Origin: Azospirillum baldaniorum
GTDB taxonomy: Bacteria; Pseudomonadota; Alphaproteobacteria; Azospirillales; Azospirillaceae
Reading direction: 5' to 3'
DNA length: 64,000 nt
NCBI RefSeq assembly: GCF_003119195.2
Contig: NZ_CP022262.1
Coordinates: forward strand, 330,501-394,500
Position 1 is the first letter of the stretch. Each line of letters opens with the position of its first letter. The position numbers and the translations under genes are program-made. Shown here piece after piece: positions 1,446 through 41,353 of this stretch. The notes beneath the pieces are model-generated. The model saw only the letters and a program-made list of their open reading frames with translations, was not told where the DNA came from and ran no database searches.

Positions 1446-1524
1446 TTTTAAAAACCGCACGGCTTTAAAAGATGAGTTTGTCACCCTGAAAAGGCTGCGG
1501 TTTTTTACTCCGGTTTAAACGGGG
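1446..1524 (+). promoter_or_regulatory. Candidate laf regulatory motif, two copies upstream of flagellin
   Basis: The 339-base gap 1297-1635 holds no gene. It carries two T/A-rich, CCGG-bearing motifs in an otherwise GC-rich setting: TTTTAAAAACCGCACGG running into CTTTAAAAG (1446-1471), and GCGGTTTTTTACTCCGG running into TTTAAACGGGG (1497-1524). The second ends 112 bases before the flagellin start. Very similar elements precede flgB, flhA and flgE in this window. The proposal that they bind the FtcR-like regulator is inference. Confidence 0.55.
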
Positions 1525-1635
1525 TCGGTCACAGTCGAATGGTCGGTTGCGCGCCCATAAAAACCAAGTGGGAAGGCCCGCGCACCCGGCCCCAGCGTCA
1601 GAAAGGCGCTCTGCATCTCGCGAATGGAGATACAC

Positions 1636-2880
1636 ATGGCCTCGATCATGACCAACACCTCGGCGATGACCGCGCTGCAGACGCTGCGCCGCGTGACCGA
1701 CGATCTGGCGACCACCCAGGATCGCATCTCGACCGGTCTCAAGGTCAACAACGCCAAGGACAACGCCGCCTACTGGTCCATCGCCACGACCATGCGCGCC
1801 GACGTCGCCGGCTTCAAGGCGGTGAAGGAATCGCTGGAACTGGGTTCGGGCACGACCAACACCGCGTCGGTGGCGTCCAAGAACATCGTCGAGAACCTGC
1901 AGACGCTGAAGGCCCGCGTCATTGCCGGCCAGACCAACGGCGTCGACAAGTCGCTGATCCAGAACGACATCGACCAGCTCGTCAAGCTGGTGAAGGGCGC
2001 CGCCGCCGACGCTTCCTTCAACGGCGACAACCTGCTGCGCATCACCTACTCCAACGACGGCACGGCCAAGGACCAGAACGTCGACATCCTGGCGTCGCTG
2101 AGCCGCAGCGCCGGCACGGTCGATCCGAGCTACATCAGCTTCCAGCGCCAGGACATGCAGGTCACCTCGATCGTCGGCAAGGCCACGATCGAGCAGCAGG
2201 TGGACTCCACCAACGACCTGAAGGCCAGCGTCGGCATCGCCATCGGTGCGCCGGACACCACCTTCATCGACGGCCAGAACCTGGGCCTGGGCAACCTGAC
2301 CCTGAACGTGACCAACGAGGCGGGCACCAAGACCGCCGTGACGGTGGACCTGTCGGGCATCGACTACACCACGGATCTGGCGACCACCCAGGGCCTGATC
2401 GAGACCGCGGTCAACACGGCCCTGACCGCGGCCGGCGGCGACTTCCAGGTGGCCTTCAACGGCGACAAGCTGGAATTCACCGACCAGGACCTGAACACCG
2501 ACGGCAACTTCACCGCCAAGGTGGACAGCCTGTGGGTCGGTTCGAAGGAAAGCGACGCCTTCGGCGGCTTGGCCGACCTGACGCAGATCGACGTGACCTC
2601 CAACGCCACCAAGTCGCTCGAGGTCATCAACGGCCTGCTCGACAAGGCCATCGGCAAGGCCGCGGTGATCGGTTCCATCGAGAACCGCGTGTCGGTGCAG
2701 AACGACTTCGTGTCGAAGCTGACCGACTCGATGAACAAGGGCATCGGCTCCCTGGTGGACGCCGACATGAACGAGGAATCGAGCCGCCTGCAGGCCCTCC
2801 AGGTCCAGCAGCAGCTCGCCACCCAGGCGCTGTCGATCGCCAACCAGGGTCCGCAGAACATTCTCTCGCTGTTCCGCTAA
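1636..2880 (+). CDS. laf1: Flagellin, probably the lateral flagellin Laf1
   Basis: 414 residues, about 43 kDa by length. The N-terminal D0/D1 region (MASIMTNTSAM, DRISTGLKVNNAKDNAAYWS) and the C-terminal D0 region (LQVQQQLATQALSIANQGPQ, ending in LFR) are the conserved filament-packing parts. The centre, roughly residues 170-300, is the variable surface region. There is no signal peptide, as expected for type III export. ATG at 1636 is preferred over ATG 1624 because GGAG sits about 7 bases before it. The size fits the Azospirillum lateral flagellin rather than the much larger glycosylated polar flagellin. flaF and flbT follow directly. The laf1 name rests on size and context. Confidence 0.85.
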   Translation: MASIMTNTSAMTALQTLRRVTDDLATTQDRISTGLKVNNAKDNAAYWSIATTMRADVAGFKAVKESLELGSGTTNTASVASKNIVENLQTLKARVIAGQTNGVDKSLIQNDIDQLVKLVKGAAADASFNGDNLLRITYSNDGTAKDQNVDILASLSRSAGTVDPSYISFQRQDMQVTSIVGKATIEQQVDSTNDLKASVGIAIGAPDTTFIDGQNLGLGNLTLNVTNEAGTKTAVTVDLSGIDYTTDLATTQGLIETAVNTALTAAGGDFQVAFNGDKLEFTDQDLNTDGNFTAKVDSLWVGSKESDAFGGLADLTQIDVTSNATKSLEVINGLLDKAIGKAAVIGSIENRVSVQNDFVSKLTDSMNKGIGSLVDADMNEESSRLQALQVQQQLATQALSIANQGPQNILSLFR

Positions 2881-2889
2881 CCCGGTCCG

Positions 2890-2928
2890 GCCGGCGTCCC
2901 TCTCCCGAGGGGGCGCCGGCCTCTTTTT
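2890..2928 (+). terminator. Rho-independent terminator of flagellin
   Basis: GCCGGCG (2890-2896) pairs with CGCCGGC (2914-2920), with an inner CCCTC/GAGGG pairing, followed at once by CTCTTTTT. It starts 10 bases after the flagellin stop codon. This is a textbook terminator for an abundant monocistronic transcript. Confidence 0.8.
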
Positions 2929-2991
2929 CCTTATTCGATCCAGCCCCAGCCCCATTCCGGCGCCCCCGTGCGCGTTGCATAAGGTGCGACC

Positions 2992-3384
2992 ATGAGCATC
3001 GCCGCCTACCAGCAGACGATGGCCGAGTGCGAAGACCCGCGCCGCATCGAATATCTGGTCTTCCTCCGCATCACCCTGGATCTGGAGGCCAACCGCGCCG
3101 CCGGCTGGCGGTCGGCGGCGCTGAAGGACGCGCTGTGGCGCAACCTGGAACTCTGGAACACGCTGCGCGCCGACCTTCTGGAGGACGGCAACGCGCTGCC
3201 CGAGGCGCTGCGCGCCGGGCTGGTCTCGCTGTCCTTCTCGGTGGCGCGCCAGACCACCCAGGTGCTGCGCGGCGAGGCCGACGCGGGCACGCTGATCGAC
3301 ATCAACCGGTCGGTCATGCGCGGCCTGCAGGGCGTGGCCCGCACGGAGGCTCCCGCCCCGATGGAGGCCTCCTATGGCGCTTAA
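2992..3384 (+). CDS. flaF: Flagellar biosynthesis regulator FlaF
   Basis: 130 residues matching the alphaproteobacterial FlaF family: start MSIAAYQQTM, then CEDPRRIEYLVFLRIT, LWNTLRADL and a C-terminal helix LIDINRSVMRGL. In Caulobacter, FlaF promotes flagellin synthesis or assembly and acts opposite FlbT. The order flagellin-flaF-flbT is the usual one. The 3' end overlaps flbT by 11 bases, so the two are translated together. A 111-base gap with a terminator separates it from the flagellin gene, so it probably has its own promoter or depends on read-through. Confidence 0.92.
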   Translation: MSIAAYQQTMAECEDPRRIEYLVFLRITLDLEANRAAGWRSAALKDALWRNLELWNTLRADLLEDGNALPEALRAGLVSLSFSVARQTTQVLRGEADAGTLIDINRSVMRGLQGVARTEAPAPMEASYGA

Positions 3385-3811: not shown

Positions 3812-3815
3812 CGCC

Positions 3816-4984: not shown

Positions 4985-5024
4985 GCGGCGGCGTTCCGGC
5001 AGGCCGAATTCCGGGAGATTGGCT

Positions 5025-6107: not shown

Positions 6108-6122
6108 GGCCCCCCATCCCTC

Positions 6123-8460: not shown

Positions 8461-9069
8461 TCAGAGGCGGACGGCCGGGCGGTCCGCCGGCTGGGTGGCG
8501 TGCAGCTCGTACAGCTTCGCGAGGATTTGCGGGGCGGGCTGCTCCGCCTTGGGCGCCGCCTTGTCCGCCTTATCCGCGGCGTCGTCGGTGCTCGGCGTCT
8601 TGCGGGCGAGCGCTTCCGCCAGCACGGCGGGGGACGGGCGATGGTCCGCCGGCGGCTCCTGCGCCGCGCCGGCAAGGAAGGGCAGGGGTGGAGCGTTGGA
8701 CGGCACGTCCTTTGCCGGGGCCTTCGTCTCTTCCGCGCCGCCCTCAGCCAGCGTGACGAGGTGGCCGAGCGGGTCGTCGCCGGTCACCGCCTCGAAGGCG
8801 GCCATCGCGGCGCTGCCCAGCAAGCCGATGGGGCCGCCGAACAGGAAGCCGCCAGCCAGCCGCGCCGGCAGGCCGATCTCGTCGCCGGTGGCATGGCGGT
8901 AGACCTGCGACACCCCCGGCAGATGTTGGAGCGGATTCACTGCGTCCAGCAGGTCTCCGAAATCCAGACTGAGATCCGCCGTCTCCTGTTTGGTCGGGGC
9001 CTTCACGGCGTCCCGTGCGGCGGTCGTCGGGGCAAGCGCGCGGGTGGCGAGCGCGGTGGCGTTGGTCAT
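8461..9069 (-). CDS. Unknown protein coupled to fliI
   Basis: 202 residues, no family name known to me. The centre contains a conserved-looking block, LLDAVNPLQHLPGVSQVYRH with TGDEIGLPARLAGGF and FGGPIGLLGSAAMAAFEAVT, which has Gly-rich and weakly hydrophobic segments around residues 65-95. The N- and C-terminal parts are low-complexity, rich in Ala, Lys, Asp and Pro. The ATG overlaps the fliI stop codon by 4 bases, so it is translationally coupled to the export ATPase. Its position is where other bacteria often keep FliJ or FliK, but neither family is recognisable. It ends 6 bases from the convergent LysR gene. Confidence 0.65.
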   Translation of the reverse strand: MTNATALATRALAPTTAARDAVKAPTKQETADLSLDFGDLLDAVNPLQHLPGVSQVYRHATGDEIGLPARLAGGFLFGGPIGLLGSAAMAAFEAVTGDDPLGHLVTLAEGGAEETKAPAKDVPSNAPPLPFLAGAAQEPPADHRPSPAVLAEALARKTPSTDDAADKADKAAPKAEQPAPQILAKLYELHATQPADRPAVRL

Positions 9070-10406
9070 GGGACAACTCCGGCGGGAACGGCGAGGATGC
9101 GGTCGAGGAAACGGAAGGAGTCGAGGGATGGCGTGGCGTCGTCCTTGCCCTGGCGCAGGAACTCCTCCAGCGCCGGGTTCAGCGCGACGGCGTCGTCCAC
9201 CTCCGCGTCGGTGCCCTGCTTGTAGGCGCCGATGCGCACCAGCTCCCGCATGTTGTCGTAGGTGGCTGCGAGGCTCCGCGCGCGGCGCAGCAGGGTGTTC
9301 TGCTCCGCCGTGTGGCAGCCGGGCAGCAGGCGCGACACGCTGCGCAGCACGTTGACGGCGGGGTAGCGCCCCTGCTCCGCGATGCGGCGGTCCAGCACGA
9401 CATGGCCGTCCAGGATGCCGCGCACCGCGTCGGCGATCGGCTCGTCATGGTCGTCGCCGTCCACCAGCACGGTGAAGATGCCGGTGATGTCGCCTTGGCC
9501 CTCTTGTCCCGGCCCGGCGCGCTCCATCAGTTTGGGGAGTTCGGCGAAGACGCTGGGCGGGTAGCTCTTGGCGGTCGGCGGCTCCCCGGCGGCCAAGCCG
9601 ATCTCGCGCTGGGCCATGGCGAAGCGCGTCACGCTGTCGATCAGGCAGAGGACGTGCAGGCCGCGGTCGCGCAGCTCCTCCGCCACGGTCAGGCAGAGAT
9701 ATGCTGCCTGCCGGCGCATCAGCGGCGGCTCGTCCGAGGTGGCGACGATGACGACGGAGCGGGCGAGGCCGTCCGCCCCCAGATCGTCCTGGATGAACTC
9801 CTGCACCTCGCGCCCGCGCTCGCCGACCAGCCCGATCACGATGGCGTCGGCCCCGGCGTGGCGGGCGACCATCGACAGCAGCGTCGACTTGCCGACGCCC
9901 GACCCGGCGAAGACGCCCATGCGCTGGCCGCGGCAGATCGGCGTGAAGACGTCGATGGCGCGCACGCCGGTGTCCATCTTCGCCCCCACCCGGCGGCGCG
10001 CGTAGGCCGGCGGCGGGGCGGCGCGCAACGGGCGGGCGTGGTGGCCGTTGCGCAAGGGGCCGCGCCCGTCGATCGGTTCGCCCAGCGCGTTGACGACGCG
10101 GCCCAGCCAGCCGGGGCCGGGGCGCAGCGTGAAGGCGGTGTCGTCGGTGACGGCGGCGCAGCCCTCCGCCACGCCGTCCAGATTGTCGAAGGCCATCAGC
10201 AGCGTGCGGCCCTGGCGGAAGCCGATCGTCTCGCACAGCAGCCGTTGGCCGCGCGCCGTCTCCGCCCAGCATTTGTCGCCCACCGCCAGGACGCGGCGCA
10301 GCCCCTCCACCTCCAGCGTCATGCCGGTGGCGCTGCGAATCTCGCCGCGCCAGGATCGGGTCGGCATCCGCTCGATCTCGGACAGAAGGTTGGAAAGCAC
10401 GCGCAT
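9066..10406 (-). CDS. fliI: Flagellum-specific ATP synthase FliI (export ATPase)
   Basis: 446 residues, the usual FliI length. The Walker A motif GSGVGKST is at residues 168-175, LVGERGREVQEF follows, and the Walker B region LCLIDSVTRFA and SYPPSVFAELPKLMERAG are the expected FliI signatures. It hydrolyses ATP at the cytoplasmic face of the flagellar export gate and helps unload substrates. It is transcribed away from flgB; the 125-base gap holds a candidate laf regulatory motif that may act in both directions. FliH and FliJ are not next to it. Confidence 0.95.
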   Translation of the reverse strand: MRVLSNLLSEIERMPTRSWRGEIRSATGMTLEVEGLRRVLAVGDKCWAETARGQRLLCETIGFRQGRTLLMAFDNLDGVAEGCAAVTDDTAFTLRPGPGWLGRVVNALGEPIDGRGPLRNGHHARPLRAAPPPAYARRRVGAKMDTGVRAIDVFTPICRGQRMGVFAGSGVGKSTLLSMVARHAGADAIVIGLVGERGREVQEFIQDDLGADGLARSVVIVATSDEPPLMRRQAAYLCLTVAEELRDRGLHVLCLIDSVTRFAMAQREIGLAAGEPPTAKSYPPSVFAELPKLMERAGPGQEGQGDITGIFTVLVDGDDHDEPIADAVRGILDGHVVLDRRIAEQGRYPAVNVLRSVSRLLPGCHTAEQNTLLRRARSLAATYDNMRELVRIGAYKQGTDAEVDDAVALNPALEEFLRQGKDDATPSLDSFRFLDRILAVPAGVVP

Positions 10407-10452: not shown

Positions 10453-10483
10453 GGATTTTAAATCCGGTTTTAAACGGCGGGCG
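10453..10483 (+). promoter_or_regulatory. Candidate laf regulatory motif between fliI and flgB
   Basis: GGATTTTAAATCC is an odd-length palindrome centred on one T. It leads directly into CCGGTTTTAAACGGCGGGCG. The motif ends about 50 bases before the flgB start and begins 47 bases from the fliI start. The spacing of TTTTAAA blocks (one helical turn) suggests two half-sites for a dimeric regulator. It matches the elements at 1497-1524, 12934-12959 and 41325-41353. Confidence 0.6.
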
Positions 10484-10531
10484 TCATCTTGGCCCTGCCT
10501 TGCTTTCCGGCTTTGCGATAGGGCCGTTCCA

Positions 10532-10924
10532 ATGGATTTTAGTAATATTTCGGTGTTCCGGCTGACCGGCGCGCGCCTCGATTACTTGGCGGAGCGGCAG
10601 AAGCTGATCGCCGCCAACGTCGTGAACGCCAACACGCCCGGCTACCAGCCGAAGGACCTGAAGCCCTTCGCGGCGCTGATGGACGGCCCGCAGACGGTGG
10701 CGCCCGCGCTCACCTCGCCCATGCACCTGACGGGCTTCAACCCGTCCGGCGCGGTGCAGGAAGCGCGCAAGCCCGAGCAGTGGGAAACCACGCCGGACGG
10801 CAACGCCGTGTCGCTGGAGCAGGAGATGACCAAGGGCAGCGAGACGCGCGACGCCTTCGCACTGACCGCCGGCCTGTTCCAGCGCAACCTGCAAATCCTG
10901 CGCGCCGCCTGGCGCGCCGGTTGA
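10532..10924 (+). CDS. flgB: Flagellar proximal rod protein FlgB
   Basis: 130 residues. The N-terminal rod signature is RLDYLAERQKLIAANVVNAN followed by TPGYQPKDLKPF, and the C-terminal part QRNLQILRAAWR is the conserved D0 helix. FlgB forms the first rod layer joined to the MS ring and is exported without a signal peptide. It opens the operon flgB-flgC-fliE-fliQ and is followed 20 bases later by flgC. The likely ribosome site is weak, which is unusual for the first gene of the operon. Confidence 0.93.
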   Translation: MDFSNISVFRLTGARLDYLAERQKLIAANVVNANTPGYQPKDLKPFAALMDGPQTVAPALTSPMHLTGFNPSGAVQEARKPEQWETTPDGNAVSLEQEMTKGSETRDAFALTAGLFQRNLQILRAAWRAG

Positions 10925-10944
10925 CGATTTCCGGAGTCCTTCCC

Positions 10945-11364
10945 ATGCTCACCGATCCCCTGGCCGCGACGATGCGGATCGCCAGTTCGGGCCTGCAGGC
11001 GCAGGGCACCCGGCTGCGCGTGGTCGCCGAGAACATCGCCAACTCCGATTCCACCGCCATGACCGCGGGCGGCGATCCCTACCGCCGCAAGACCGTCTCC
11101 TTCGCGACCACGATGGACCGCGCCGCCGGGTCGGAGATCGTGAAGGTCAAGCAGATCGGGCGCGACCGCAGCGACTTCCAGCTCGTCTACGAGCCCTCGC
11201 ACCCCGCCGCCGACGAGAAGGGCTACGTCAAGCGCCCGAACGTCCAGCCGCTGATCGAGATGATGGACATGCGCGAGGCCAGCCGGTCCTTCGAGGCGAG
11301 CGTCAACGTCATCGAGCAGTCGCGCAGCATGATGAGCCGCATGATCGACCTTCTGCGCGGCTGA
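10945..11364 (+). CDS. flgC: Flagellar proximal rod protein FlgC
   Basis: 139 residues, standard length. It contains the rod-family N-terminus (MRIASSGLQAQGTRLRVVAE, NIANSDS) and the C-terminal VKRPNVQPLIEMMDMREASR then SFEASVNVIEQSR. GGAG at 10932-10935 precedes ATG 10945 at a normal distance. FlgC sits above FlgB in the rod. It is followed 13 bases later by fliE. Confidence 0.94.
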   Translation: MLTDPLAATMRIASSGLQAQGTRLRVVAENIANSDSTAMTAGGDPYRRKTVSFATTMDRAAGSEIVKVKQIGRDRSDFQLVYEPSHPAADEKGYVKRPNVQPLIEMMDMREASRSFEASVNVIEQSRSMMSRMIDLLRG

Positions 11365-11377
11365 GGAGACCCAGAGC

Positions 11378-11740
11378 ATGATCGAACCCATCGGCCGCGC
11401 CGCCGCCGCCTACGGCCTCCACCGCGCGCCCCTGGCCCAGCCGTCCCCCGCTGCGTCGCTCGCCACCCCGCCCGCCGCGGCGGCTGCGGCCTCGCCGTCC
11501 GGCGAGACGGCGGCGTCGGCGGAGAGCAGCTTCGGCGCCTTCCTCGACCGTCAGGTGTCGCAGGCGGTGGAGACGCTGAACGAGGGCGAGCGCATGTCCG
11601 TCGCCGCCGTCGCCGGCAAGGCCGGCACGCACGAGGTCGTGCGCTCCGTGCTCGCCGCCGAGATGACCGTGCAGACGGTCGTGTCGATCCGCGACCGCAT
11701 GGTGCAGGCCTATCAGGACGTTATGCGGATGGCGATCTGA
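11378..11740 (+). CDS. fliE: Hook-basal body adaptor protein FliE
   Basis: 120 residues. The Ala/Pro-rich N-terminal third is variable, while residues 50-120 carry the FliE core (SSFGAFLDRQVSQAVETLNE, HEVVRSVLAAEMTVQTVVSI, RDRMVQAYQDVMRM). FliE links the MS ring to the rod and helps open the export gate. AGGAGACC lies just upstream. The next gene, fliQ, comes only after a 103-base palindromic repeat. Confidence 0.92.
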   Translation: MIEPIGRAAAAYGLHRAPLAQPSPAASLATPPAAAAAASPSGETAASAESSFGAFLDRQVSQAVETLNEGERMSVAAVAGKAGTHEVVRSVLAAEMTVQTVVSIRDRMVQAYQDVMRMAI

Positions 11741-11760
11741 GCGCGTGTGTTGGGACGCAT

Positions 11761-11863
11761 TGCCCCCTCCCTAACCCTCCCCCGCTTCGCAGGGGAGGGG
11801 ATGACCTCCCTCCCTTGCGAAGCGGGGGAGGGAAGGGACCCGCGAAGCGGGAAGGGTGGGGGC
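11761..11863. repeat. Palindromic intergenic repeat, family B copy 1
   Basis: 103 bases made of complementary arms TGCCCCCTCCCTAACCCTCC and a GGGAAGGGTGGGGGCA end, with internal CCCCCGCTTCGCAGGGGAGG and its complement TTGCGAAGCGGGGGAGG. Other copies are at 53192-53294 and 63340-63425. This copy sits inside the flagellar operon between fliE and fliQ, and its RNA should form a long hairpin that could affect expression of fliQ and the genes after it. Confidence 0.8.
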
Positions 11864-11887
11864 AACACGCTCCCTAGGAGAACCCCC

Positions 11888-12154
11888 ATGAACGAAGCCG
11901 ACGTGCTGGAAGTCCTGCGCACGGGCATCTGGACGATGCTGCTGATCGCCGCGCCGCCGCTGGTCATCGCGGTCCTGGTGGGCGTGGCGATCTCGCTCGT
12001 CCAGGCGCTGACCCAGGTGCAGGAGATGACGCTGACCTTCGTGCCGAAGATCGTCGCCATCCTGGTCACCACCGTGCTGGCGCTGCCCTTCATGTACGGC
12101 GCGCTCACCACCTACGCCGACCGGCTGGGCAGCCTGATCGTCTCGGTGCGGTGA
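11888..12154 (+). CDS. fliQ: Flagellar export gate protein FliQ
   Basis: 88 residues with two hydrophobic helices, the standard FliQ architecture. Conserved stretches are MNEADVLEVLRTGIWTMLLI, VGVAISLVQALTQVQEMTLT and FVPKIVAI. FliQ is part of the FliP-FliQ-FliR channel in the inner membrane. AGGAG lies 8 bases before ATG 11888. The next gene begins 1 base after the stop. Confidence 0.95.
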   Translation: MNEADVLEVLRTGIWTMLLIAAPPLVIAVLVGVAISLVQALTQVQEMTLTFVPKIVAILVTTVLALPFMYGALTTYADRLGSLIVSVR

Positions 12155-12155
12155 C

Positions 12156-12926
12156 ATGCGGCGGCTGGCCGGACTGGCGGCGCTGCTCCTGGCCGGGACC
12201 GCGACCGCCGCGGACGTGAAGCCGCAGGCCGCGCAGATCGGCACCTGGTCCACCGCTCTCTACGCGCCGCGGGTCCTGCCCGCGCGCAGCCTGCCGCCGG
12301 AGGCCGCCTGCATCGACGCCATCCTGGCGGCGGAGCGGGAGGCGGGGGTGACCGACCACATGCTCCTCGCCATGGGCTTCACCGAGGCCGGGCGGATGAC
12401 CGCCGACCGGCTGTTCACCGTCTGGCCCTGGACCGTCAACACCGAAGGCGCCTCCCAGTACTTTCCGACGCGCGAGGAGGCCATCGCCTTCGTGCGCGCC
12501 GCGCAGGCGCGGGGCACGCGCTCCATCGACGTCGGCTGCCTCCAGGTGAACCTTAAATGGCACCCCGACGCCTTTCCCGACCTTGAGACCGCCTTCGACC
12601 CGCGCGCCAACGCCCGCTACGCCGCGCGCTTCCTGGGCGACCTGCACCGCGCGCAGGGATCGCTGGACGCCGCCATCGCCCGCTACCACTCCGCCCAGTC
12701 GGAGCGCGGAGCGGCCTACCGCGAGCGGGTCGGCGGCAACCGGCGCTGGGTGGCCGGCGCCATGGATTACCTGAAGACGCTGGCCGCCGGCCCCCAAGTG
12801 GCCACTTCCCAAGCCGCCCCCGGTGCGCTGCCCGCCTGGGGCCGGGCGGAGCTGGGCCGCTTGTCCTTCCTGTCCAGCCTCTACGCCAACGCGGCGGTGA
12901 AACCCCTCCTGCCGGGCGCGGACTGA
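12156..12926 (+). CDS. Periplasmic lytic transglycosylase-like protein in the flagellar operon
   Basis: 256 residues with an N-terminal signal peptide (MRRLAGLAALLLAGTATAAD). Residues 45-210 resemble an SLT domain: a catalytic-type Glu in GFTEAGR, then SIDVGCLQVNLKWHP, FDPRANARYAARFLGDL and the alternating IARYHSAQSERG. Such enzymes cut peptidoglycan to let the rod pass. It starts 1 base after fliQ, so it belongs to the operon. The rod-binding FlgJ-like protein of this window lacks a hydrolase domain, so this enzyme may supply that activity; that link is inference. Confidence 0.8.
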   Translation: MRRLAGLAALLLAGTATAADVKPQAAQIGTWSTALYAPRVLPARSLPPEAACIDAILAAEREAGVTDHMLLAMGFTEAGRMTADRLFTVWPWTVNTEGASQYFPTREEAIAFVRAAQARGTRSIDVGCLQVNLKWHPDAFPDLETAFDPRANARYAARFLGDLHRAQGSLDAAIARYHSAQSERGAAYRERVGGNRRWVAGAMDYLKTLAAGPQVATSQAAPGALPAWGRAELGRLSFLSSLYANAAVKPLLPGAD

Positions 12927-12933
12927 CCCCGAC

Positions 12934-12959
12934 GTAAAAGCCGGTTTTACCGCGGGACG
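12934..12959 (+). promoter_or_regulatory. Candidate laf regulatory motif upstream of flhA
   Basis: GTAAAAGCCGGTTTTAC is a palindrome with one mismatch, followed by CGCGGGACG. It lies in the 70-base gap before flhA and ends 38 bases from its ATG. The CCGGTTTTA core is shared with the flgB and laf1 elements. It suggests that flhA-fliR-flhB has its own promoter as well as possible read-through from fliQ. Confidence 0.5.
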
Positions 12960-12996
12960 CTAGCGTACCAACGGTGCCGCACCCTGGAGTTCCCGC

Positions 12997-15090
12997 ATGG
13001 CTTTCACGGACACCCTTCGGAACCGGATGACCAGCCTCGGCGATGCCGGGCTGGCGAACCGCGACGTGCTGTTCGCGCTGGCCATCGTGCTGGTGCTGGC
13101 CGTGCTGTTCCTGCCGGTGCCGACCTGGTTCCTCGACCTCGGGCTGGCGCTGTCGCTGGCGGTCAGCGTGCTGATCCTGATGGTCTCGCTGTGGATCTCC
13201 CGGCCGCTGGACTTCTCGTCCTTCCCGACGGTGCTGCTGGTCGTCACGGTGCTGCGGCTGGCGCTGAACATCGCGTCCACCCGCCTGATCCTCAGCCACG
13301 GGCACACCGGCCCGTCCGCCGCCGGCCATGTGATCGAGGGCTTCAGCCAGTTCATCATGGGCGGCAACTTCGTGATCGGCGTGGTGATCTTCGCCATCCT
13401 GATCGTCATCAACTTCGTGGTCATCACCAAGGGCGCCACCCGCATCGCGGAGGTCGGCGCGCGCTTCACGCTGGACGCCATCCCCGGCAAGCAGATGGCC
13501 ATCGACGCCGACCTGTCCGCCGGCATGATCGACGACGTCGAGGCCCGCCGCCGCCGCAAGGAACTGGAGGACGAGAGCACCTTCTTCGGCGCCATGGACG
13601 GCGCGTCGAAGTTCGTGCGCGGCGACGCGGTGGCCGGGCTGGTCATCACCGCCATCAACGTGCTGGGCGGCATGGCCATCGGCATGGCGCAGCAGGGCAT
13701 GTCCTTCGAATCCGCGGCGTCGGTCTACACCATCCTGACGGTGGGCGACGGTTTGGCGACGCAGATTCCGGCGCTGGTCGTCTCGCTGGCCGCTGGCCTG
13801 CTGGTGACCAAGGGCGGCAACGTCGGCTCCGCCGATCAGGCGGTGCTCGCCCAGCTCGGCGGCTATCCCAAGGCGCTGATGGTGGCGGGCGGGCTGCTCT
13901 GCACGCTGGGCGTGACGCCGGGCCTGCCGGCCGCCCCCTTCGTCCTGCTCGGCGGCGGCTTCGGCGCGGCGGGCTGGTACGCGATGCGCGGCAAGATGCG
14001 CCGCGCCGCACTCGCCCGGCTGGAGGAAAGCCGCAAGGCGCCCACCGCCCCGGCCGAGGAGGCGGTGGAGGACATGCTGAAGGTGGACGAGGTGAAGGTG
14101 GAGGTCGGCAACCACCTCGTCCCGCTGATCCTCAACAAGAACGGCCCGCTGACCGGCAAGGTGAAGACGCTGCGCAAGCGTTTCGCCAAGGAATTCGGCT
14201 TCATCCTGCCGTCGGTGCGCATCAAGGACAGCAGCTTCCTGCCGCCCAAAGGCTATGTGGTCAGTGTGATGGGCGTCGAGGTGGCGAGCGGCGAGGTGCG
14301 GCCCAAGCAGCTGCTCGCCATCGACCCGTCCGGCGGGGCGGCCCCCGACCTGCCCGGCGAGGCGACGCGGGAGCCGACCTTCAACCTTCAGGCCCGCTGG
14401 ATCGACCCGGCGCGCCACGAGGAGGCTATCGCCAAGGGCTACACGGTGGTCGACCCGGAAAGCGTCATCACCACCCACCTGACCGAGGTCATCAAGGACC
14501 ATCTCTCCACCCTGCTGACTTTCGCCGCCATGCAGAAGCTGCTCGACGGGCTGGGGCGGGAGTACCAGAAGCTGATCGCCGACATGGTGCCGTCGCGCAT
14601 TACCTTGGTGGTGGTGCAGCGCGTGCTCCAGGCGCTGCTGGCGGAGCGGGTGTCGATCCGCAACCTGCCGGCCATCGTCGAGGCCATCGCCGAGGCGGTA
14701 AACTGGACGCGCAACATCACGCTGGTCACCGAGCATGTGCGGGCGCGGCTCGGCCAGCAGATCTGCCAGTCGCTGACGGCACCCGACGGCTTCGTCCCGG
14801 TCATCGTCCTGACCCCGCGCTGGGAGCAGGCGCTCCAGCAGAGTGTCATCGCGGAGGGCGAGGATCGCCGCTTCGCCATGCCGCCGACCCAGGTGCAGGA
14901 GTTCCTGACGGCGCTGCGCATCACCATCCAGAAGCACGCCACGCCGCAGGTCTGGCCGGCGCTGCTGGTCGGGGCGGAGGTGCGGCCCTTCGTGCGCTCC
15001 CTGCTGGAGCGGGTCAGCCCGATGACCCCGGTCATCAGCCACGCCGAGCTGCACCGCAAGGTGTCCGTCAAGACGATCGACCAGGTTTGA
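12997..15090 (+). CDS. flhA: Flagellar export gate protein FlhA
   Basis: 697 residues, full length. The first 330 residues hold about eight membrane helices and the conserved loop (RIAEVGARFTLDAIPGKQMA, IDADLSAGMIDD), then TVGDGLATQIPALVVSLAAG. The cytosolic part (residues 350-697) carries GYVVSVMGVEVASGEVRPKQ and ATREPTFNLQARWID. FlhA forms a nine-subunit ring that docks export substrates and chaperones and uses proton flow. It starts the flhA-fliR-flhB group. Confidence 0.97.
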   Translation: MAFTDTLRNRMTSLGDAGLANRDVLFALAIVLVLAVLFLPVPTWFLDLGLALSLAVSVLILMVSLWISRPLDFSSFPTVLLVVTVLRLALNIASTRLILSHGHTGPSAAGHVIEGFSQFIMGGNFVIGVVIFAILIVINFVVITKGATRIAEVGARFTLDAIPGKQMAIDADLSAGMIDDVEARRRRKELEDESTFFGAMDGASKFVRGDAVAGLVITAINVLGGMAIGMAQQGMSFESAASVYTILTVGDGLATQIPALVVSLAAGLLVTKGGNVGSADQAVLAQLGGYPKALMVAGGLLCTLGVTPGLPAAPFVLLGGGFGAAGWYAMRGKMRRAALARLEESRKAPTAPAEEAVEDMLKVDEVKVEVGNHLVPLILNKNGPLTGKVKTLRKRFAKEFGFILPSVRIKDSSFLPPKGYVVSVMGVEVASGEVRPKQLLAIDPSGGAAPDLPGEATREPTFNLQARWIDPARHEEAIAKGYTVVDPESVITTHLTEVIKDHLSTLLTFAAMQKLLDGLGREYQKLIADMVPSRITLVVVQRVLQALLAERVSIRNLPAIVEAIAEAVNWTRNITLVTEHVRARLGQQICQSLTAPDGFVPVIVLTPRWEQALQQSVIAEGEDRRFAMPPTQVQEFLTALRITIQKHATPQVWPALLVGAEVRPFVRSLLERVSPMTPVISHAELHRKVSVKTIDQV

Positions 15091-15100
15091 GGGATCGGTG

Positions 15101-15859: not shown

Positions 15860-15883
15860 GAAGGGGGCGGTGAGGAGGCGGCG

Positions 15884-36315: not shown

Positions 36316-37497
36316 TCAGATGATTTCCAGGTCGGCGTGCAGCGCGCCCGCCGCCTTGATCGCCTGGAGGATGGCGACCATGTCGCGCGGCCCGACGCCC
36401 AGCGCGTTCAGACCGTTGACGAGCTGTTGCAGGCTGACGTTGCCGCCGATGGTGACGAACTGGCGCCCGTTGCCCTCCTGCACCTGCACGTCGGTACGCG
36501 GCACCACCACGGTCTGCCCGTCGGAGAAGGGCTGCGGCTGCGACACCTGGGGCGTCTCCACCACGCGGACAGTCAGGTTGCCCTGGGTGATGGCGACGCG
36601 GCTGATGCGCACATCGTCGCCAATGACCACGGTGCCGCTGCGCTCGTCCACCACCACCCGCGCGATGCCGTCCGGGCGCACGGTGAGCTGCTCGATGTCG
36701 CCGATCAGCCGGGCGACCGCGCCGGTGTAGCGGGGCGGGATGCGCACATCGACGGTGGTCGCGTCCAGCACATGGACGGCGCTGCTGCCCAGCCGCACCG
36801 CCACCGCGTCGGCGATGCGGTTGGCGGTGGTGAAGTCGGGGTTGCGCAGCGCCATGCGCACGCCGGTCGTCTCGTCCAGCGCGAATTTCAGCTCGCGCTC
36901 CACGATGGCGCCGTTGGCGATGCGGGCGCTGGTCGGCACGCCCTTGGTCACGTTGGCGGCCACCCCGCCAGCCGAGAAGCCGCTGACCGACAGCGACCCC
37001 TGGGCCACGGCGTAGGCCTGCCCGTCGGCGCCCAGCAGCGGCGTGACCAGCAGCGTGCCGCCGAGCAGGCTGGTGGCGTCGCCCAGCGCCGACACGGTGA
37101 TGTCGATGGTCGTGCCCTGGCGGGCGAAGGGCGGCAGCGAGGCTGTGACCATCACCGCCGCGGCGTTGCGGGTGCGCAGCACCTCGTCGCGGGTGTTGAT
37201 GCCCAGCCGCTCCAGCATGCCCTTCAGGCTCTGCTCGGTGAAGGGCGTGTTGATCAGCCGGTCGCCCGAGCCGTTCAGCCCGACCACGAGGCCATAGCCG
37301 ATGAGCTGGTTGCGGCGCACCCCGTCGAAGGTGACGAGATCCTTCACCCGCGTCTGGGCCAGCCCCTCCTCTGCCACGGCGGCGGCGGCCAGCAGGCAGG
37401 CCATGGCGAGCGCCAAGGCGCGGAGGGTGCGGCGGATCGGGCCATGCTTCGTCGGGCCGTGCTTCGTCGGGCCGTGCGTCATCAGACCGTCTTTCAT
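36316..37497 (-). CDS. flgI: Flagellar P-ring protein FlgI
   Basis: 393 residues. A signal peptide with hydrophobic core LALAMACLLAAAAVAEE is followed by the mature start TRVKDLVTFDGVRRNQLIGY and GLVVGLNGSGD, then TPFTEQSLKGMLERLGIN and PPFARQGTTIDITVSALGDA, all classical for FlgI. It forms the periplasmic P ring around the rod. Before the signal peptide there is an unusual tandem repeat THGPTKHGPTKHGP. No flgH or flgA gene is adjacent. Confidence 0.95.
   Translation of the reverse strand: MKDGLMTHGPTKHGPTKHGPIRRTLRALALAMACLLAAAAVAEEGLAQTRVKDLVTFDGVRRNQLIGYGLVVGLNGSGDRLINTPFTEQSLKGMLERLGINTRDEVLRTRNAAAVMVTASLPPFARQGTTIDITVSALGDATSLLGGTLLVTPLLGADGQAYAVAQGSLSVSGFSAGGVAANVTKGVPTSARIANGAIVERELKFALDETTGVRMALRNPDFTTANRIADAVAVRLGSSAVHVLDATTVDVRIPPRYTGAVARLIGDIEQLTVRPDGIARVVVDERSGTVVIGDDVRISRVAITQGNLTVRVVETPQVSQPQPFSDGQTVVVPRTDVQVQEGNGRQFVTIGGNVSLQQLVNGLNALGVGPRDMVAILQAIKAAGALHADLEII
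37439..37483 (-). repeat. Three 15-bp tandem repeats in the flgI leader
   Basis: GGGCCATGCTTCGTC, GGGCCGTGCTTCGTC and GGGCCGTGCGTCATC follow each other without gap (plus-strand reading). They encode the repeated pentapeptide KHGPT/THGPT before the signal peptide of FlgI. The unit is a multiple of three, so copy-number change would keep the reading frame. Confidence 0.85.
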
Positions 37498-37519
37498 CGT
37501 CCCGTGGGAAAGAGGCTTC

Positions 37520-38584
37520 CTACAGGTAATTGGTGAGGCTCATGCGGGCGATGCGGGCGGTGGCCGCCGCGGTCGCCTCGATCTGCACTTCGAGCTGGTT
37601 CATGCGCAGGCTGGCCTCCGCCGGATCGACGCTTTCCATCGCGTCGAGCTGGTCGTTGAGGATGCGCAGCTGCGTCGTGTTCATCGCCGCGATGTCGTCG
37701 AGCTGCGCGCGGTGGATGCCCAGTTGCGCGGTGGCGTCGCGCACCCCCTCGATGCCGCCCGACACCTTGGCGACCGCGGCCTCCATGTAGGGCTTGTAGG
37801 CGTCCAGCGGCAGCTGGCTGGTGTCGACGCTGGCCAGCATGTAGAGGCCCTGGAGCAGGTCCCGCATGGCCGGGTCGTTGCCCTGGATGCCGTAGGGGAT
37901 CTCGGTCGTGCGGTCGAGCCGGGCGCTGAGGCGCGGCGCGGTCGAGGGCGCCCCCTGGTAGAACCCGCCCTCGAAGCCGAGCGGCGAGGCCGACGGCGTG
38001 GCGAACAGGTCGTCCAGCGCCGCCACGGCGGCAGCGGTCTCGGCCGGAGTCTGCGGCGATGACGTGCCTCCGGTGGCCGCGGCAATGGCGTCCTGCACGA
38101 TCTGGATGGGCGAGGGCAGGCCGGACTCGTCGCCCTGCACGGCGCGCATGGGGGCGGTCTTCACCTCCACCCCGCCGAACAGGTAGCCGTTGCCGGAGGA
38201 GGCGTTGAGCATGCCCACCACCTGCTCCAGCATGGCGCGGGCCCGCACCTGGAGCGAGCTGCCGGTGGGCGAGGGCTGGCCCAGCCCGACCGAGGCGGCG
38301 GCCAGCACGTCCTGCCCGGCGGACAGGATGTTGGTCAGTGCGCTGTCCATGGTGCCCAGCCGCCCCTGCAGCAGGGCGGTGGATTTCAGGGTCTGGTCGG
38401 TCTCGTCATACAGGTTGCGCAGCGCGATGGCCTGCCCGGTGCGCGCACCCAGCGCCTTGGCGACGTCGAAATGCTTGCCGCTGGCGATCTCGTCGTTGTT
38501 GCGCAGCCGCTCGAGCTGAAGCTCGGTGTTGGCGGTCTGCAGGCGCTTGGACAGGCCGAGGGTGGAGACGGCGTTGTAGAGCAT
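37520..38584 (-). CDS. flgL: Hook-filament junction protein FlgL
   Basis: 354 residues. It shows flagellin-like N-terminal helices (LQTANTELQLERLRNNDEIA, SGKHFDVAKALGARTGQAIA) and the C-terminal part ESVDPAEASLRMNQLEVQIE followed by TAAATARIARMSLTNYL. FlgL joins the hook cap region to the filament. Just 4 bases separate it from flgK and 22 from flgI in the same operon. Its export chaperone is probably the FlgN-like protein at the operon end. Confidence 0.9.
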   Translation of the reverse strand: MLYNAVSTLGLSKRLQTANTELQLERLRNNDEIASGKHFDVAKALGARTGQAIALRNLYDETDQTLKSTALLQGRLGTMDSALTNILSAGQDVLAAASVGLGQPSPTGSSLQVRARAMLEQVVGMLNASSGNGYLFGGVEVKTAPMRAVQGDESGLPSPIQIVQDAIAAATGGTSSPQTPAETAAAVAALDDLFATPSASPLGFEGGFYQGAPSTAPRLSARLDRTTEIPYGIQGNDPAMRDLLQGLYMLASVDTSQLPLDAYKPYMEAAVAKVSGGIEGVRDATAQLGIHRAQLDDIAAMNTTQLRILNDQLDAMESVDPAEASLRMNQLEVQIEATAAATARIARMSLTNYL

Positions 38585-38588
38585 GGCG

Positions 38589-39986
38589 TCAGTTCCGGAT
38601 CTGGAGCAGCGTGTCGAGCATCCGCCCGGCGGCCTGGAGCACCTGGGCGCTGGCGCCGTAGCTCTGCTCGATCAGCAGCAGCTTCTGCATTTCGTCGTCG
38701 ACGTTCACGCCGTCGCGGTTGAGACGCGCCGACTGCAGCGCGTCGGCGCTGATCTTGCGGGTCTTCATCTCGGACTCGGCGGTGGTGCGGTAGCCCTGCT
38801 GGGTGGAGACCATGCCGGTGGCGTAGTCGCCCAGCGTGGCCGAGGAGGGCAGGTCCGCCGCGGCGAAGCTGCGGGTGGCCGAGAAGGCGTTCAGGAAGCG
38901 GTCGATCTGCGTGGTGTCGCCCGACGCCAGCGGAGCGCCCGCCTGGACGCCGCTCTGCACCATCCAGGGGTGGCTTCGCACGCTGCCGTTGACGGCGATG
39001 CGCGAGGCCAGCCCTTCCGTCGCGCCATAGGCGGCGCCGGCGTCGGTGAACAGGCCGGGCTGGGTGGGGTCGGCCTCCGCCGCCTGGAACTGCTGCACGA
39101 TGCCCGCCGCCAGCTCGTCGAGCTGGGCCAGCGCCCGCGGCATGTCCTGGTGGGCGGTCTGGACATAGCCCATGATGCGCCCGCTCTGGATGTCCTGGTC
39201 CGGGTTGTCGGAGATGATCTTGCCGCCGGCCACCAGATCGCCGCCGACGAGCTGAAGCGGCTGGGCGCCCGCCGGCAGCTCACGGTCGAGCAGCGTCTGG
39301 CCGTTGCGGGTCATCACCACGACCTCCCCGCTCTCGCGGGTGTGGGTGCGGATGCCGATCTCGCTCGACACCTGATCGAGCAGCCGGTCGCGCTCGTCCA
39401 TCAGGTCGCCGGTCTCGGCGCCCTTGGCCTTCTGGGTGGCGATGGTGCTGTTCAGCTCCCCGATGCGGACGAGCGAGCGGTTGACCTCGTCGACGGAGGA
39501 CTGGAGCCGCGCCTTGGCGTCGTTCTGCACGGTGATGGCCGCGGCGGCGGTGTCGTGCAGGCGGCGCACCAGCGATTCCGCGGAATCCACCACGGCGGTG
39601 CGCGCCGCCTCGTTGTCCGCCTGGTTGCGGAGCTGGCTGAAGGACTGCTGGAGCTTGGCCAAGGCGGTGGAGACGGACCGCTCGTCCTGCGGCTGGCCCA
39701 GCGCGGTGGCGTAGTCGGCCAGCGCCGAGGCGCGGGTTTCCTGCGCGGTGTAGCGGCTCTGTTCGAACCGGGCGTCGCGGATCAGGAACTCGTCCACGCT
39801 GCGCAGCACGCCGTCGACGCGCACGCCCTGGCCGCGCCCGCCGCCGATCGCGGTGGAGACGGCCAGATCCTTGCGGACGAAGCCCGCGGTGGTGGCGTTG
39901 GTGATGTTGTGCGAGACCAGCGCGGCTTGCTGCTGGGTCGCGCGCAGCCCGGACAGGGCGGCGCTGAGGGCCAGTTGGAGGCTCAT
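38589..39986 (-). CDS. flgK: Hook-filament junction protein FlgK
   Basis: 465 residues. N-terminus MSLQLALSAALSGLRATQQQ with SHNITNATTAGFVRKD is the FlgK rod/hook signature, and the C-terminus (DEEMQKLLLIEQSYGASAQV then LQAAGRMLDTLLQIR) is the conserved D0 helix. FlgK is the first junction protein above the hook. It lies 25 bases after flgE and 4 bases before flgL. Confidence 0.95.
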   Translation of the reverse strand: MSLQLALSAALSGLRATQQQAALVSHNITNATTAGFVRKDLAVSTAIGGGRGQGVRVDGVLRSVDEFLIRDARFEQSRYTAQETRASALADYATALGQPQDERSVSTALAKLQQSFSQLRNQADNEAARTAVVDSAESLVRRLHDTAAAAITVQNDAKARLQSSVDEVNRSLVRIGELNSTIATQKAKGAETGDLMDERDRLLDQVSSEIGIRTHTRESGEVVVMTRNGQTLLDRELPAGAQPLQLVGGDLVAGGKIISDNPDQDIQSGRIMGYVQTAHQDMPRALAQLDELAAGIVQQFQAAEADPTQPGLFTDAGAAYGATEGLASRIAVNGSVRSHPWMVQSGVQAGAPLASGDTTQIDRFLNAFSATRSFAAADLPSSATLGDYATGMVSTQQGYRTTAESEMKTRKISADALQSARLNRDGVNVDDEMQKLLLIEQSYGASAQVLQAAGRMLDTLLQIRN

Positions 39987-40011
39987 GGCGGGCTATCCCC
40001 TTTCCCGTCCG

Positions 40012-41244
40012 TCAGCGCTTCAGACGGGTGGTCTCGTCCACCATCTCGTCGGCGGTGCGCACCAGCGTGGCGTTCGAGGAGTAGGCGCGCTGCGTCTCGA
40101 TCAGCGACACCAGTTCCTCCGCGATGTCGACGTTCGACTGCTCCAGCGCGTAGCCGGCGACCGAGCCGGCGGTGCCGCTGTTGCCGTTGCTCAGCGTCAT
40201 CGTGCCGCTGTCGATGCCCAGCGTGTAGGTGTTGCCGTCCTGCGGGACCAGACCGCCGGGGTTGACCACGTCGGCGACCGGCACCTGATAGAGCGGCTGG
40301 CGGGCGCCGTTGTCGTAGACGGCCCACAGCGTGCCCGCCTTGTCGATGTCCACGGTGCTGACGCGGCCGGCGCGGGCGCCGTCGCCCATGAACTGCGGCA
40401 CGTAGTCGCCGTTGAGCTGCGTCAGGTTGCCGACCGTGACGTTGACGGTGTCCGGCGTCGGGTTGGCCGGCGAGGTCAGCGTGATCTGCGGCAGGGCGCC
40501 CGCCGGCAGGCCGGCGTTGGCGCCCGTGGTGTTGAAGGTGACGGTGCTGGTCGACAGCGTCGCGGTGTAGCCGGCGGGCGGCGTGACCGACAGCGTCCAT
40601 TCGTTCGGGTTGGCCGTCTTCGTCCAGGTCATCGTGACGTCGAGCGGGTTGCCGAGCCCGTCATAGAGCGAGGTGGAGGTGTCGAAGCTGGTGCCGTCCG
40701 TGGCCTGGGCCGGCAGGTTGCCGGCGAAGCTCATCTGCGTCGTCTTGCTGCCGCCATAGGCCAGCCCGGCGATGGAGACGGCGCTCAGCCCGTCGAAGCT
40801 GCTGCGGTTCACCGCGGGCAGGCTGCCGTCCGGACCCAGCTTCCAGGCCTGGAGATACTGGCCGGCGCTGTTGCGCAGGAAGCCCTGGTCGTCAGGCAGG
40901 AAGCTGCCGGCGCGGGTCAGCGCGTAGCCGGGCGAGGTTCCGGTGGTGCCGGCGTTGTCGGCGACGACGAAGAAGCCGCGCCCCTCGATGGCCATGTCGG
41001 TGGCGGACTGGGTGCCCTGGATGGTCCCGTCCTTCAACACCTGATAATGCACGTTGGAGCGGACGCCGCCCGCGGAGTAGTTGCTCGTCGAGCCGGAGGA
41101 GGTCATCAGCGTCGAGAAGTCGACCGCGGCGCGCTTGTAGCCGATGGTGGCGGAGTTGCTGATGTTGTCCGAAATGGCGGCCATCCGCGAGCTTTGCGCG
41201 GACATGCCGCTCACACCGGACCGCATGGCGCTGAACAGGCTCAT
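40012..41244 (-). CDS. flgE: Flagellar hook protein FlgE
   Basis: 410 residues. N-terminus MSLFSAMRSGVSGMSAQSSR then DNISNSATIGYKRAAVDF; middle DMAIEGRGFFVV and the hook domain; C-terminus SNVDIAEELVSLIETQRAYS and TADEMVDETTRLKR. It polymerises into the hook after export through FlhA/FlhB. It is the first gene of the late operon flgE-flgK-flgL-flgI-flgJ-flgN-like. A candidate laf regulatory motif lies 80 bases upstream. The hook cap gene flgD and length-control gene fliK are not adjacent. Confidence 0.95.
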   Translation of the reverse strand: MSLFSAMRSGVSGMSAQSSRMAAISDNISNSATIGYKRAAVDFSTLMTSSGSTSNYSAGGVRSNVHYQVLKDGTIQGTQSATDMAIEGRGFFVVADNAGTTGTSPGYALTRAGSFLPDDQGFLRNSAGQYLQAWKLGPDGSLPAVNRSSFDGLSAVSIAGLAYGGSKTTQMSFAGNLPAQATDGTSFDTSTSLYDGLGNPLDVTMTWTKTANPNEWTLSVTPPAGYTATLSTSTVTFNTTGANAGLPAGALPQITLTSPANPTPDTVNVTVGNLTQLNGDYVPQFMGDGARAGRVSTVDIDKAGTLWAVYDNGARQPLYQVPVADVVNPGGLVPQDGNTYTLGIDSGTMTLSNGNSGTAGSVAGYALEQSNVDIAEELVSLIETQRAYSSNATLVRTADEMVDETTRLKR

Positions 41245-41324
41245 CGGGAGATCCTCATCCTAAATCGGTTGGGCCGGAAGCGAGCCACGGGATTCTCCGC
41301 GATGGACTTCGGAGGGGAGAGTAC

Positions 41325-41353
41325 AGGGCGGCTTTTAAAGCGGATTTAAAGAG
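41325..41353 (-). promoter_or_regulatory. Candidate laf regulatory motif upstream of flgE
   Basis: On the minus strand: CTTTAAATCCGC followed by TTTAAAAGCCGCCC, 80 bases before the flgE start. This is the same TTTAAA-5 bases-TTTAAA layout as at flgB. About 15 bases further upstream lies GGAAAATTTTAAGT (41368-41381), identical to the 14-mer before the FtcR-like gene. The 291-base gap 41245-41535 also holds the promoter of the divergent cold-shock gene and no other gene. Confidence 0.55.

What the first reader, a model, noticed from the sequence alone, without database searches (positions are those of the whole stretch)
1446..41353. Shared TTTAAA/CCGGTTTTAAA motif before four flagellar transcription units
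At laf1 (1497-1524), flgB (10453-10483), flhA (12934-12959) and flgE (41325-41353) the same A/T-rich half-sites with a CCGG or CCGC centre occur in an otherwise GC-rich sequence, 38-112 bases from the start codon. Two TTTTAAA blocks lie one helical turn apart. This looks like the binding site of a dimeric laf regulator, most simply the FtcR-like protein. I know of no published motif of this form for Azospirillum.
Basis: partly seen in the sequence, partly recalled or inferred. Interest (0 to 1): 0.72.

Follow-up and report, generated by a model that had tools for sequence, protein, structure and literature searches.

The report
Shared switch for Azospirillum lateral flagella
The same short DNA switch sits in front of the main gene sets that build the side flagella of Azospirillum, and it looks like the docking site of a dedicated relative of the cell-cycle regulator CtrA encoded next to the flagellin gene, which would give these flagella a master regulator of their own.

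Summary
Confirmed and extended. All seven TTTAAA in the window lie at the laf1, flgB and flgE promoters (0.26 expected); flhA has a variant. In genus loci read, the element stands at laf1 22/22, flgB 19/19, flhA 17/17 and flgE 30/30, with a -10-like hexamer at a fixed distance. A matrix from these four promoters, run on the replicon, next picked the laf flgF operon, a second copy of the FtcR-like gene and the laf fliF operon. Fifty-six sites of six promoters align without gaps: two TTWA half-sites 11 bp apart plus a -10 with invariant A and T. A model finds six places in the 7.7-Mb genome, all laf promoters, and follows laf and the FtcR-like gene across genus and family. It is a CtrA-type box without a -35. 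The likeliest binder is the FtcR-like orphan regulator: CtrA-like recognition helix, acceptor Asp replaced by Gly. Binding is untested and CtrA remains the main rival. Brucella FtcR has another published motif. Two copies of the regulator look homogenised by gene conversion.

The parts
1500..1539 (+). laf1 promoter element: half-sites 1503-1508 and 1514-1519, -10-like hexamer 1530-1535
   Evidence: (22 of 22 loci read)
10455..10494 (+). flgB promoter element: half-sites 10457-10462 and 10469-10474, -10-like hexamer 10485-10490; near-palindromic, may also serve divergent fliI (inferred)
   Evidence: (19 of 19)
12931..12970 (+). flhA promoter element: half-sites 12934-12939 and 12945-12950, -10-like hexamer 12961-12966
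   Evidence: (17 of 17); weakest of the four in this strain
41314..41353 (-). flgE promoter element: half-sites 41350-41345 and 41339-41334, -10-like hexamer 41323-41318; exact TTAA-N7-TTAA
   Evidence: (30 of 30)
502..1296 (+). FtcR-like orphan regulator (copy A): pseudo-receiver plus OmpR/CtrA-type winged helix; proposed binder
312..325 (.). TTAA-N6-TTAA upstream of the FtcR-like gene, the same in G000, G014 and G035 and in a variant in G027 and G009 (the five printed); possible regulatory site
   Evidence: function inferred only
1636..2880 (+). laf1 lateral flagellin (target)
9066..10406 (-). fliI export ATPase, divergent from flgB
   Evidence: Pfam ATPase of type III export; named fliI from context
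10532..12926 (+). flgB-flgC-fliE-fliQ and a downstream ORF (target unit)
12997..16984 (+). flhA-fliR-flhB (target unit)
36316..41244 (-). flgE-flgK-flgL-flgI (target unit)

Best explanation
The element is the core promoter of the lateral-flagellar (laf) regulon: a CtrA-type box of two direct half-sites (consensus TTTAAAnCC, TTWA to TTWA 11 bp apart) at the place of the -35 box, upstream of a -10 hexamer with invariant A and T and without a -35. An activator of the OmpR/CtrA family binds the tandem half-sites head to tail and recruits housekeeping RNA polymerase. The activator is most likely the FtcR-like orphan regulator encoded beside laf1, which probably works without phosphorylation because its acceptor Asp is replaced by Gly, so that laf output is set by how much of it is made. 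Shown: the element, its architecture, conservation and specificity. Inferred: which protein binds, the direction (activation), and the sigma factor.
For: Architecture: 56 sites of 6 promoters align ungapped with A8, T16, A19, A32 and T36 invariant. Blind test: a matrix from four promoters ranks laf flgF, FtcR-like copy B and laf fliF 5th to 7th on the replicon; the fliF site is then the top hit at -86/87 in 30 of 30 genus loci read, and the flgF site at -53/54 is there in 30 of 30, top hit in 29. Specificity: 6 hits at E<=10 in the own genome, all laf promoters. The second, presumably polar, fliF, flgE and flgF loci and the ctrA locus score 9.7, -3.7, 5.6 and 4.3 against 33.8-40.9 at three laf loci (the matrix was trained on laf sites). 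Co-occurrence: 37 of 45 genus genomes have a laf-type FliF (76% identity or more) and all 37 have 6-10 model hits at E<=1; the other 8 have 0-2, best E 0.126. Other genera: at E<=5, 8 of 9 genomes with the FtcR-like gene have 5-12 hits (by my count 4-8 each at E<=0.1); 10 of 10 without it have 0-2, best E 0.354. 21 of the 25 such hits that were read lie just upstream of a laf-type flagellar gene. Protein: KVIDVYICKLRKK invariant in 16 of 16; the CtrA of this genome has KIIDVFVCKLRKK. Gly55 invariant in 16 of 16 at the place of the acceptor Asp (matched to CtrA by eye); receiver plus winged-helix model. Geometry resembles CtrA-activated promoters: full motif at -39 of ctrA P2 (PMC4287350, passages), invariant A at -11 (PMC6180460, passages).
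Against: No binding, expression or start-site data. The near-identical recognition helix means that CtrA could read the box. Two genomes with an FtcR-like gene lack good hits: G022 (0, one at E 1.25), which also lacks laf-type FliF, and G057 (0), not checked for laf. In the 36 loci L317-L353 (without L346), nearly all named as Rhodobacteraceae, with an FtcR-like relative the model found nothing at E<=1. The upstream region of FtcR-like copy B is a matrix hit but not a model hit. Passages say that an rpoN mutant of A. brasilense lacks both kinds of flagella and that an ECF41 sigma factor, RpoE10, regulates lateral flagella (PMC12826043). The own-genome model hits are partly by construction, since the training set holds orthologues of these promoters. 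Not every model hit in the genus was annotated.
Confidence: 0.7

Rival explanations
1. The box is bound by the chromosomal CtrA, which drives laf directly; the FtcR-like protein acts elsewhere or as a modulator.
For: The box has CtrA spacing and flgE is an exact TTAA-N7-TTAA; nearly the same recognition helix; CtrA drives a second flagellar system (fla2) in R. sphaeroides (PMC6180460, passages).
Against: Each of the 45 genus genomes has a 39-42% match that looks like CtrA (two read as CtrA), but good model hits only occur with laf and the FtcR-like gene. This is partly expected, since a genome without laf genes has no laf promoters. Of 33 exact TTAA-N7-TTAA sites outside this replicon 24 have TTAAC next to a half-site by my count, and 15 of 15 loci read (13 distinct places) lack TTTAAA. 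But the pattern is only moderately above its control (35 against 24), so these are not shown to be CtrA sites. The ctrA and presumed polar loci have no element.
Confidence: 0.18
2. laf transcription is driven by sigma54 or an ECF41 sigma factor and the A/T blocks are secondary, such as an UP element or nucleoid-protein site.
For: Passages tie sigma54 and RpoE10 to laf (PMC8429497; PMC12826043). laf1 has a GG-N10-GC at -67 to -71 in most loci read. An ECF-type sigma gene lies two genes after FtcR-like copy B.
Against: No GG-N10-GC is common to flgB, flhA and flgE loci. The ECF41 consensus, recalled, has 0 matches in the window, 0.07 expected. The -10 keeps exactly A and T, as in sigma70 promoters (recalled), at a fixed distance from the box.
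Confidence: 0.08
3. Another, unidentified regulator binds the element.
For: Only co-occurrence and helix similarity link the FtcR-like gene to it.
Against: The FtcR-like gene is next to laf-type genes in most loci read, and the box is of the class its helix predicts.
Confidence: 0.04

Closest known systems
CtrA-activated promoters (Caulobacter; R. sphaeroides fla2)
   Same: Tandem TTAA-type half-sites 11 bp apart near -35, invariant A at -11 in fla2 promoters, flagellar targets (PMC4287350 and PMC6180460, passages).
   Different: Half-sites read TTTAAAnCC rather than TTAA/TTAACCAT; follows an orphan CtrA relative and laf; no element at the presumed polar flagellar and ctrA loci examined.
LafR of Bradyrhizobium, Rem of Sinorhizobium, FtcR of Brucella
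   Same: OmpR-type regulators of a flagellar system; LafR is an orphan that drives lateral flagella without phosphorylation (PMC8429497, passages).
   Different: Published FtcR motif is TGTGGGCA, absent from the window; the same review says that A. brasilense does not encode rem; orthology was not tested.
PhoB and pho box
   Same: Same DNA-binding fold (1gxp among Foldseek matches); 11-bp direct repeats taking the place of -35 (recalled).
   Different: Half-site sequence; no acceptor Asp.

Membership tests
CtrA-type promoter box | Two TTAA-like half-sites 11 bp apart | tested here: met
   A8, T16 and A19 invariant in 56 of 56 aligned sites; exact TTAA-N7-TTAA on this replicon only at flgE and FtcR-like copy B
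CtrA-type promoter box | Box lies over -35 of a mapped start site | tested here: inconclusive
   The box begins at about -38 only if the -10 is right; no start site was mapped
CtrA-type promoter box | Bound by CtrA | not testable with these tools
   Distribution argues against
CtrA orthologue (the FtcR-like protein) | Passes the CtrA family cut-off and keeps the acceptor Asp | tested here: not met
   128.8 of 350 bits; Gly55 invariant in 16 of 16
FtcR/Rem/LafR group | OmpR-type regulator with degenerate receiver next to flagellar genes | tested here: met
FtcR/Rem/LafR group | Orthology by tree | not tested
   no FtcR, Rem or LafR sequence was fetched
FtcR (Brucella) regulon | TGTGGGCA motif | tested here: not met
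   0 matches in the window, 2.2 expected by chance
sigma54 promoter | GG-N10-GC at a common place in the laf promoters | tested here: not met
   (laf1, flgB, flhA, flgE loci); a weak one is kept at laf1

The most novel reading that the evidence does not exclude
The lateral flagella of Azospirillaceae have their own master switch: a CtrA paralogue freed from phosphorylation, reading its own dialect of the CtrA box (TTTAAAnCC). In the brasilense group it is made from two copies on one replicon, one beside the flagellin cluster and one beside the fliF cluster, kept nearly identical by gene conversion while their promoters stay different, so that two different inputs feed one output. This would replace the sigma54-only picture of laf control.
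Probability: 0.5. Interest if true: 0.62.

Novelty: new variant of a known kind. Interest (0 to 1): 0.52.

Why it matters
How Azospirillum turns on its swarming flagella is open: a review passage says that the species encodes neither visNR nor rem and points to sigma54 (PMC8429497). Here the regulon, its promoter code and a candidate master regulator are named, so the question can be settled with a double deletion and a gel shift. It also offers a natural case of two paralogous regulators, CtrA and a pseudo-receiver relative, with nearly the same recognition helix in one cell.

Tried and rejected
Rejected: CCGG as the core of the motif. An inverted-repeat dimer site as the main reading: TTTAAA is itself palindromic, so direct and inverted repeats look alike, but the -10 on one side gives a direction. 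Sigma54 as the common promoter. ECF41 consensus, recalled. Brucella FtcR motif. The third genome-wide TTTAAA pair, C2:880883, was not examined further; it is not a model hit. A possible site before the lipoprotein-like gene divergent from the regulator (window 215, minus strand; 14.8 bits) lacks the invariant A of the -10 at the usual spacing and is not counted.

Limits. Leave-one-out failed for flhA: it is not in the ten rows printed, the lowest of which is 13.4 bits. The fliF hit (16.5 bits) is barely above the best of five second-order Markov simulations (16.4), so its case rests on position and conservation. Model E-values are rough. In the own-genome search 150 of 739 first-look candidates were scored; the genus search used stricter filters. 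A1 holds 56 of the 108 sites printed, picked by me for spread; that list had also caught reverse readings of flgE sites, which I left out. In one search I gave 20 of the 82 family genomes (G022 and 19 outside the genus). Loci were returned for at most 30 genomes per search, so 22, 19, 17, 30, 30 and 30 count loci read, not all 37 laf genomes. In one search the G027 A-B identity of 0.752 comes from an ungapped comparison across a length change. A2 does not contain CtrA; CtrA was matched to it by eye. After re-checking I lowered the main confidence from a drafted 0.72 to 0.70 and the novel case from 0.55 to 0.50, because the chromosomal TTAA-N7-TTAA sites are only moderately above their control.
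Full report
What was claimed.

The sequences are where stated. In this 69% GC window TTTAAA occurs 7 times, at laf1 (3), flgB (2) and flgE (2), against 0.26 expected. The 19-base paired form gives 3 matches against 0.01 expected. CCGGTTTTAAAC alone is not unusual. In the whole 7.68-Mb genome two TTTAAA 4-7 bases apart occur at three places only: flgB, flgE and one site on another replicon. In the first 400 kb of the replicon, 7.5 kb of it masked, there are 16 TTTAAA; by my reading, 11 of the 16 lie at laf promoter regions.

The setting. Pfam supports laf1, flaF, flbT, an export ATPase (fliI), flgB, flgC, fliE, fliQ, flhA, fliR, flhB and flgI, flgL, flgK, flgE in the window. An OmpR-type regulator gene, 502-1296, lies directly before laf1. 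The window lies on C7, a 740-kb contig of a genome in 7 contigs. The closest named relatives are Azospirillum brasilense strains.

Footprint in the genus. All 45 genus genomes held were searched for the regulator and for FlgE, and stretches of about 20 kb were read around the regulator gene. Gene order is largely kept. The element is in every locus read: laf1 22 of 22, flgB 19 of 19, flhA 17 of 17, flgE 30 of 30. Counted from half-site 2, it is 16 bp to a hexamer such as TATCGT, CATCGT, TACTCT or CATCCT. The first flhA half-site is TTTAAA in 6 of 17, CTTAAA in 8 and GTAAAA, as in this strain, in 3 (my count).

Blind extension. A matrix from these four promoters, scanned over C7 (27.5 kb masked), puts the four sites first (46.9, 43.9, 41.9, 24.4 bits). 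The next three are at C7:158483, 122915 and 130975 with 18.6, 18.1 and 16.5 bits; the best of five simulations is 16.4. They lie before a flgF operon (Pfam rod/hook type; flgG, flgA and flgH named by eye), a second copy of the regulator gene, and a fliF operon with fliG and fliP. In genus loci read, the fliF site is the top hit at -86/87 in 30 of 30, and the flgF site at -53/54 is present in 30 of 30, the top hit in 29. Leave-one-out recovers laf1, flgB and flgE but not flhA.

One architecture. Fifty-six sites from six promoters align without a gap over 40 columns. Invariant are A8, T16, A19, A32 and T36; T4 is 55 of 56 and C11 53 of 56. So two TTWA half-sites lie 11 bp apart, and a hexamer [TC]AnnnT starts 15 bp after T16. 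A at its second and T at its sixth place are what sigma70-type polymerase needs (recalled). If the hexamer is the -10, the first half-site begins at about -38 and there is no -35 box. In Caulobacter the full TTAA-N7-TTAA motif lies at -39 of ctrA P2, which CtrA activates (PMC4287350, passages), and R. sphaeroides fla2 promoters under CtrA have an invariant A at -11 (PMC6180460, passages). The element looks and probably works like such a promoter.

Specificity. A sequence-only covariance model of the 56 sites finds 6 hits at E<=10 in the own genome: the six laf promoters. Copy B of the regulator gene is not among them. In the genus, 37 of 45 genomes have a laf-type FliF, and all 37 have 6-10 hits at E<=1; the other eight have 0-2, best E 0.126. 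I did not annotate every one of these hits. The regulator gene is found, whole or as an end fragment, in all 37 and in one of the eight, G022. Outside the genus I gave 19 of 37 family genomes: 9 have the regulator, and 8 of these have 5-12 hits at E<=5 (4-8 at E<=0.1 by my count; G057 none); 10 lack it and have 0-2 hits, best E 0.354. These 8 genomes hold 60 hits, of which 25 came back as loci; 21 of the 25 lie just upstream of flgB, fliI, flhA, flgI, fliF, flgF or laf1 in the right direction, and one more lies before a gene that looks like motA (by eye). None of these genomes was in the training set.

Further out. Among 53 named loci with an FtcR-like relative, 7 have hits at E<=1. Five are in the same family. 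The other two are Tepidicaulis marinus and a Rhodobiaceae MAG, whose regulator is 42-43% identical; there the hit (E about 1e-4) lies before flgI, divergent from the regulator. In four Parvularcula-type loci similar sequences stand there, but their scores do not exceed shuffles. The 36 loci L317-L353 without L346, nearly all named as Rhodobacteraceae, have no hit; some have TTAACC-type pairs before the flagellin (by eye).

Which protein. The regulator's best NCBIfam model is CtrA at 128.8 bits, cut-off 350. All 16 aligned relatives (copy B included) keep KVIDVYICKLRKK in the recognition helix, and all 16 have Gly55 where CtrA of this genome has the acceptor Asp by my reading. AlphaFold2 (mean pLDDT 76.1, pTM 0.58) gives a receiver-type domain plus winged helix with Gly55 just after strand 51-54. 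Foldseek finds OmpR/PhoB-family regulators, among them an entry titled as an atypical phosphorylation-independent orphan regulator, 2hqr. A CtrA-like helix predicts TTAA-type half-sites, which is what is seen. CtrA itself is the rival. Against it: every genus genome has a 39-42% match that looks like CtrA (two of 45 read), but good model hits only come with laf. This is partly expected, because a genome without laf genes has no laf promoters; the lack of other good sites in genomes with CtrA is the more telling part. Exact TTAA-N7-TTAA occurs 35 times in the own genome against 24 for the reversed control; 33 lie outside C7, 24 of them with TTAAC next to a half-site (my count), and 15 of 15 loci read (13 places) lack TTTAAA. 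That they are CtrA sites is not shown. The presumed polar fliF, flgE and flgF loci and the ctrA locus carry no element.

Two copies. Copy B at C7:123083 is 97-98% identical in DNA over the ORF, with no match outside it. Within genomes, A and B are 96.5-99.7% identical over 690 bases in 10 of 11 genomes (G027 excepted, a length change). Between the brasilense-group genomes compared, the figure is 94.3-96.7%, and about 86-87% to G009. In the tree A and B of one genome pair in 9 of 11; in G007 and G008 they do not. The upstream regions printed for five genomes are each conserved and differ between A and B. This is what recurrent gene conversion gives. The copy B promoter has three TTAA spaced 10 and 11 bp in G000, so it may be autoregulated (inferred).

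Against the literature. A review passage says A. brasilense encodes neither visNR nor rem and points to sigma54 (PMC8429497); another paper's passages name RpoN and an ECF41 factor, RpoE10, as needed for or regulating lateral flagella (PMC12826043). No common sigma54 box is found. Both could act through the regulator gene. Searches listed no paper whose title or abstract start tells of a laf promoter motif in Azospirillum; the ECF41 paper and the original laf1 papers are not held.

Verdict. The element is real, laf-specific and old within the family. It is a CtrA-type box in what looks like a dialect of its own. The FtcR-like protein is the likeliest reader.

Noticed in passing
502-1296 and C7:123083-123805 (L040:3083-3805): Two FtcR-like genes 208 kb apart stay 96.5-99.7% alike within 10 of 11 genomes, mostly more than between species, while flanks are unrelated: concerted evolution. 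Four relatives with draft assemblies (G004, G018, G038, G042) show only end fragments of the gene.
   Followed up: partly
1540-1635: The laf1 leader between promoter and start codon is very strongly conserved across the genus loci read, with flaF and flbT downstream: possible leader for post-transcriptional control by FlbT (recalled function). It also holds a GG-N10-GC near -67 in most of them.
   Followed up: no
C7:124335-125231 (L040:4335-5231): An ECF-type sigma factor gene of 298 residues lies two genes after FtcR-like copy B, in the region of the laf fliF cluster; it may bear on the reported RpoE10 effect on lateral flagella.
   Followed up: partly
C1:1108995-1109031 (L358): Four TTAA in a row at 11-bp steps (three overlapping TTAA-N7-TTAA) on another contig: a possible CtrA-type array near an unidentified gene.
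   Followed up: no
L308-L353: A relative of the FtcR-like gene sits between flgI and flgL in many Rhodobacteraceae and Parvularcula loci, but the loci L317-L353 lack this element; its role there is unknown.
   Followed up: partly
L253 (G022) and L246 (G057): FtcR-like genes in genomes without good model hits. In G022 laf-type FliF is absent too, and a relative of the lipoprotein-like gene stands divergent from the regulator, as in the window.
   Followed up: no
L078-L081, L087, L093, about 290 bp upstream of the regulator gene: TTAACCAT, a published CtrA motif variant (PMC6180460), in 6 of 7 genus loci of this group printed (L083 has TTAACCAA): CtrA might act on the regulator gene or on a divergent neighbour.
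   Followed up: no
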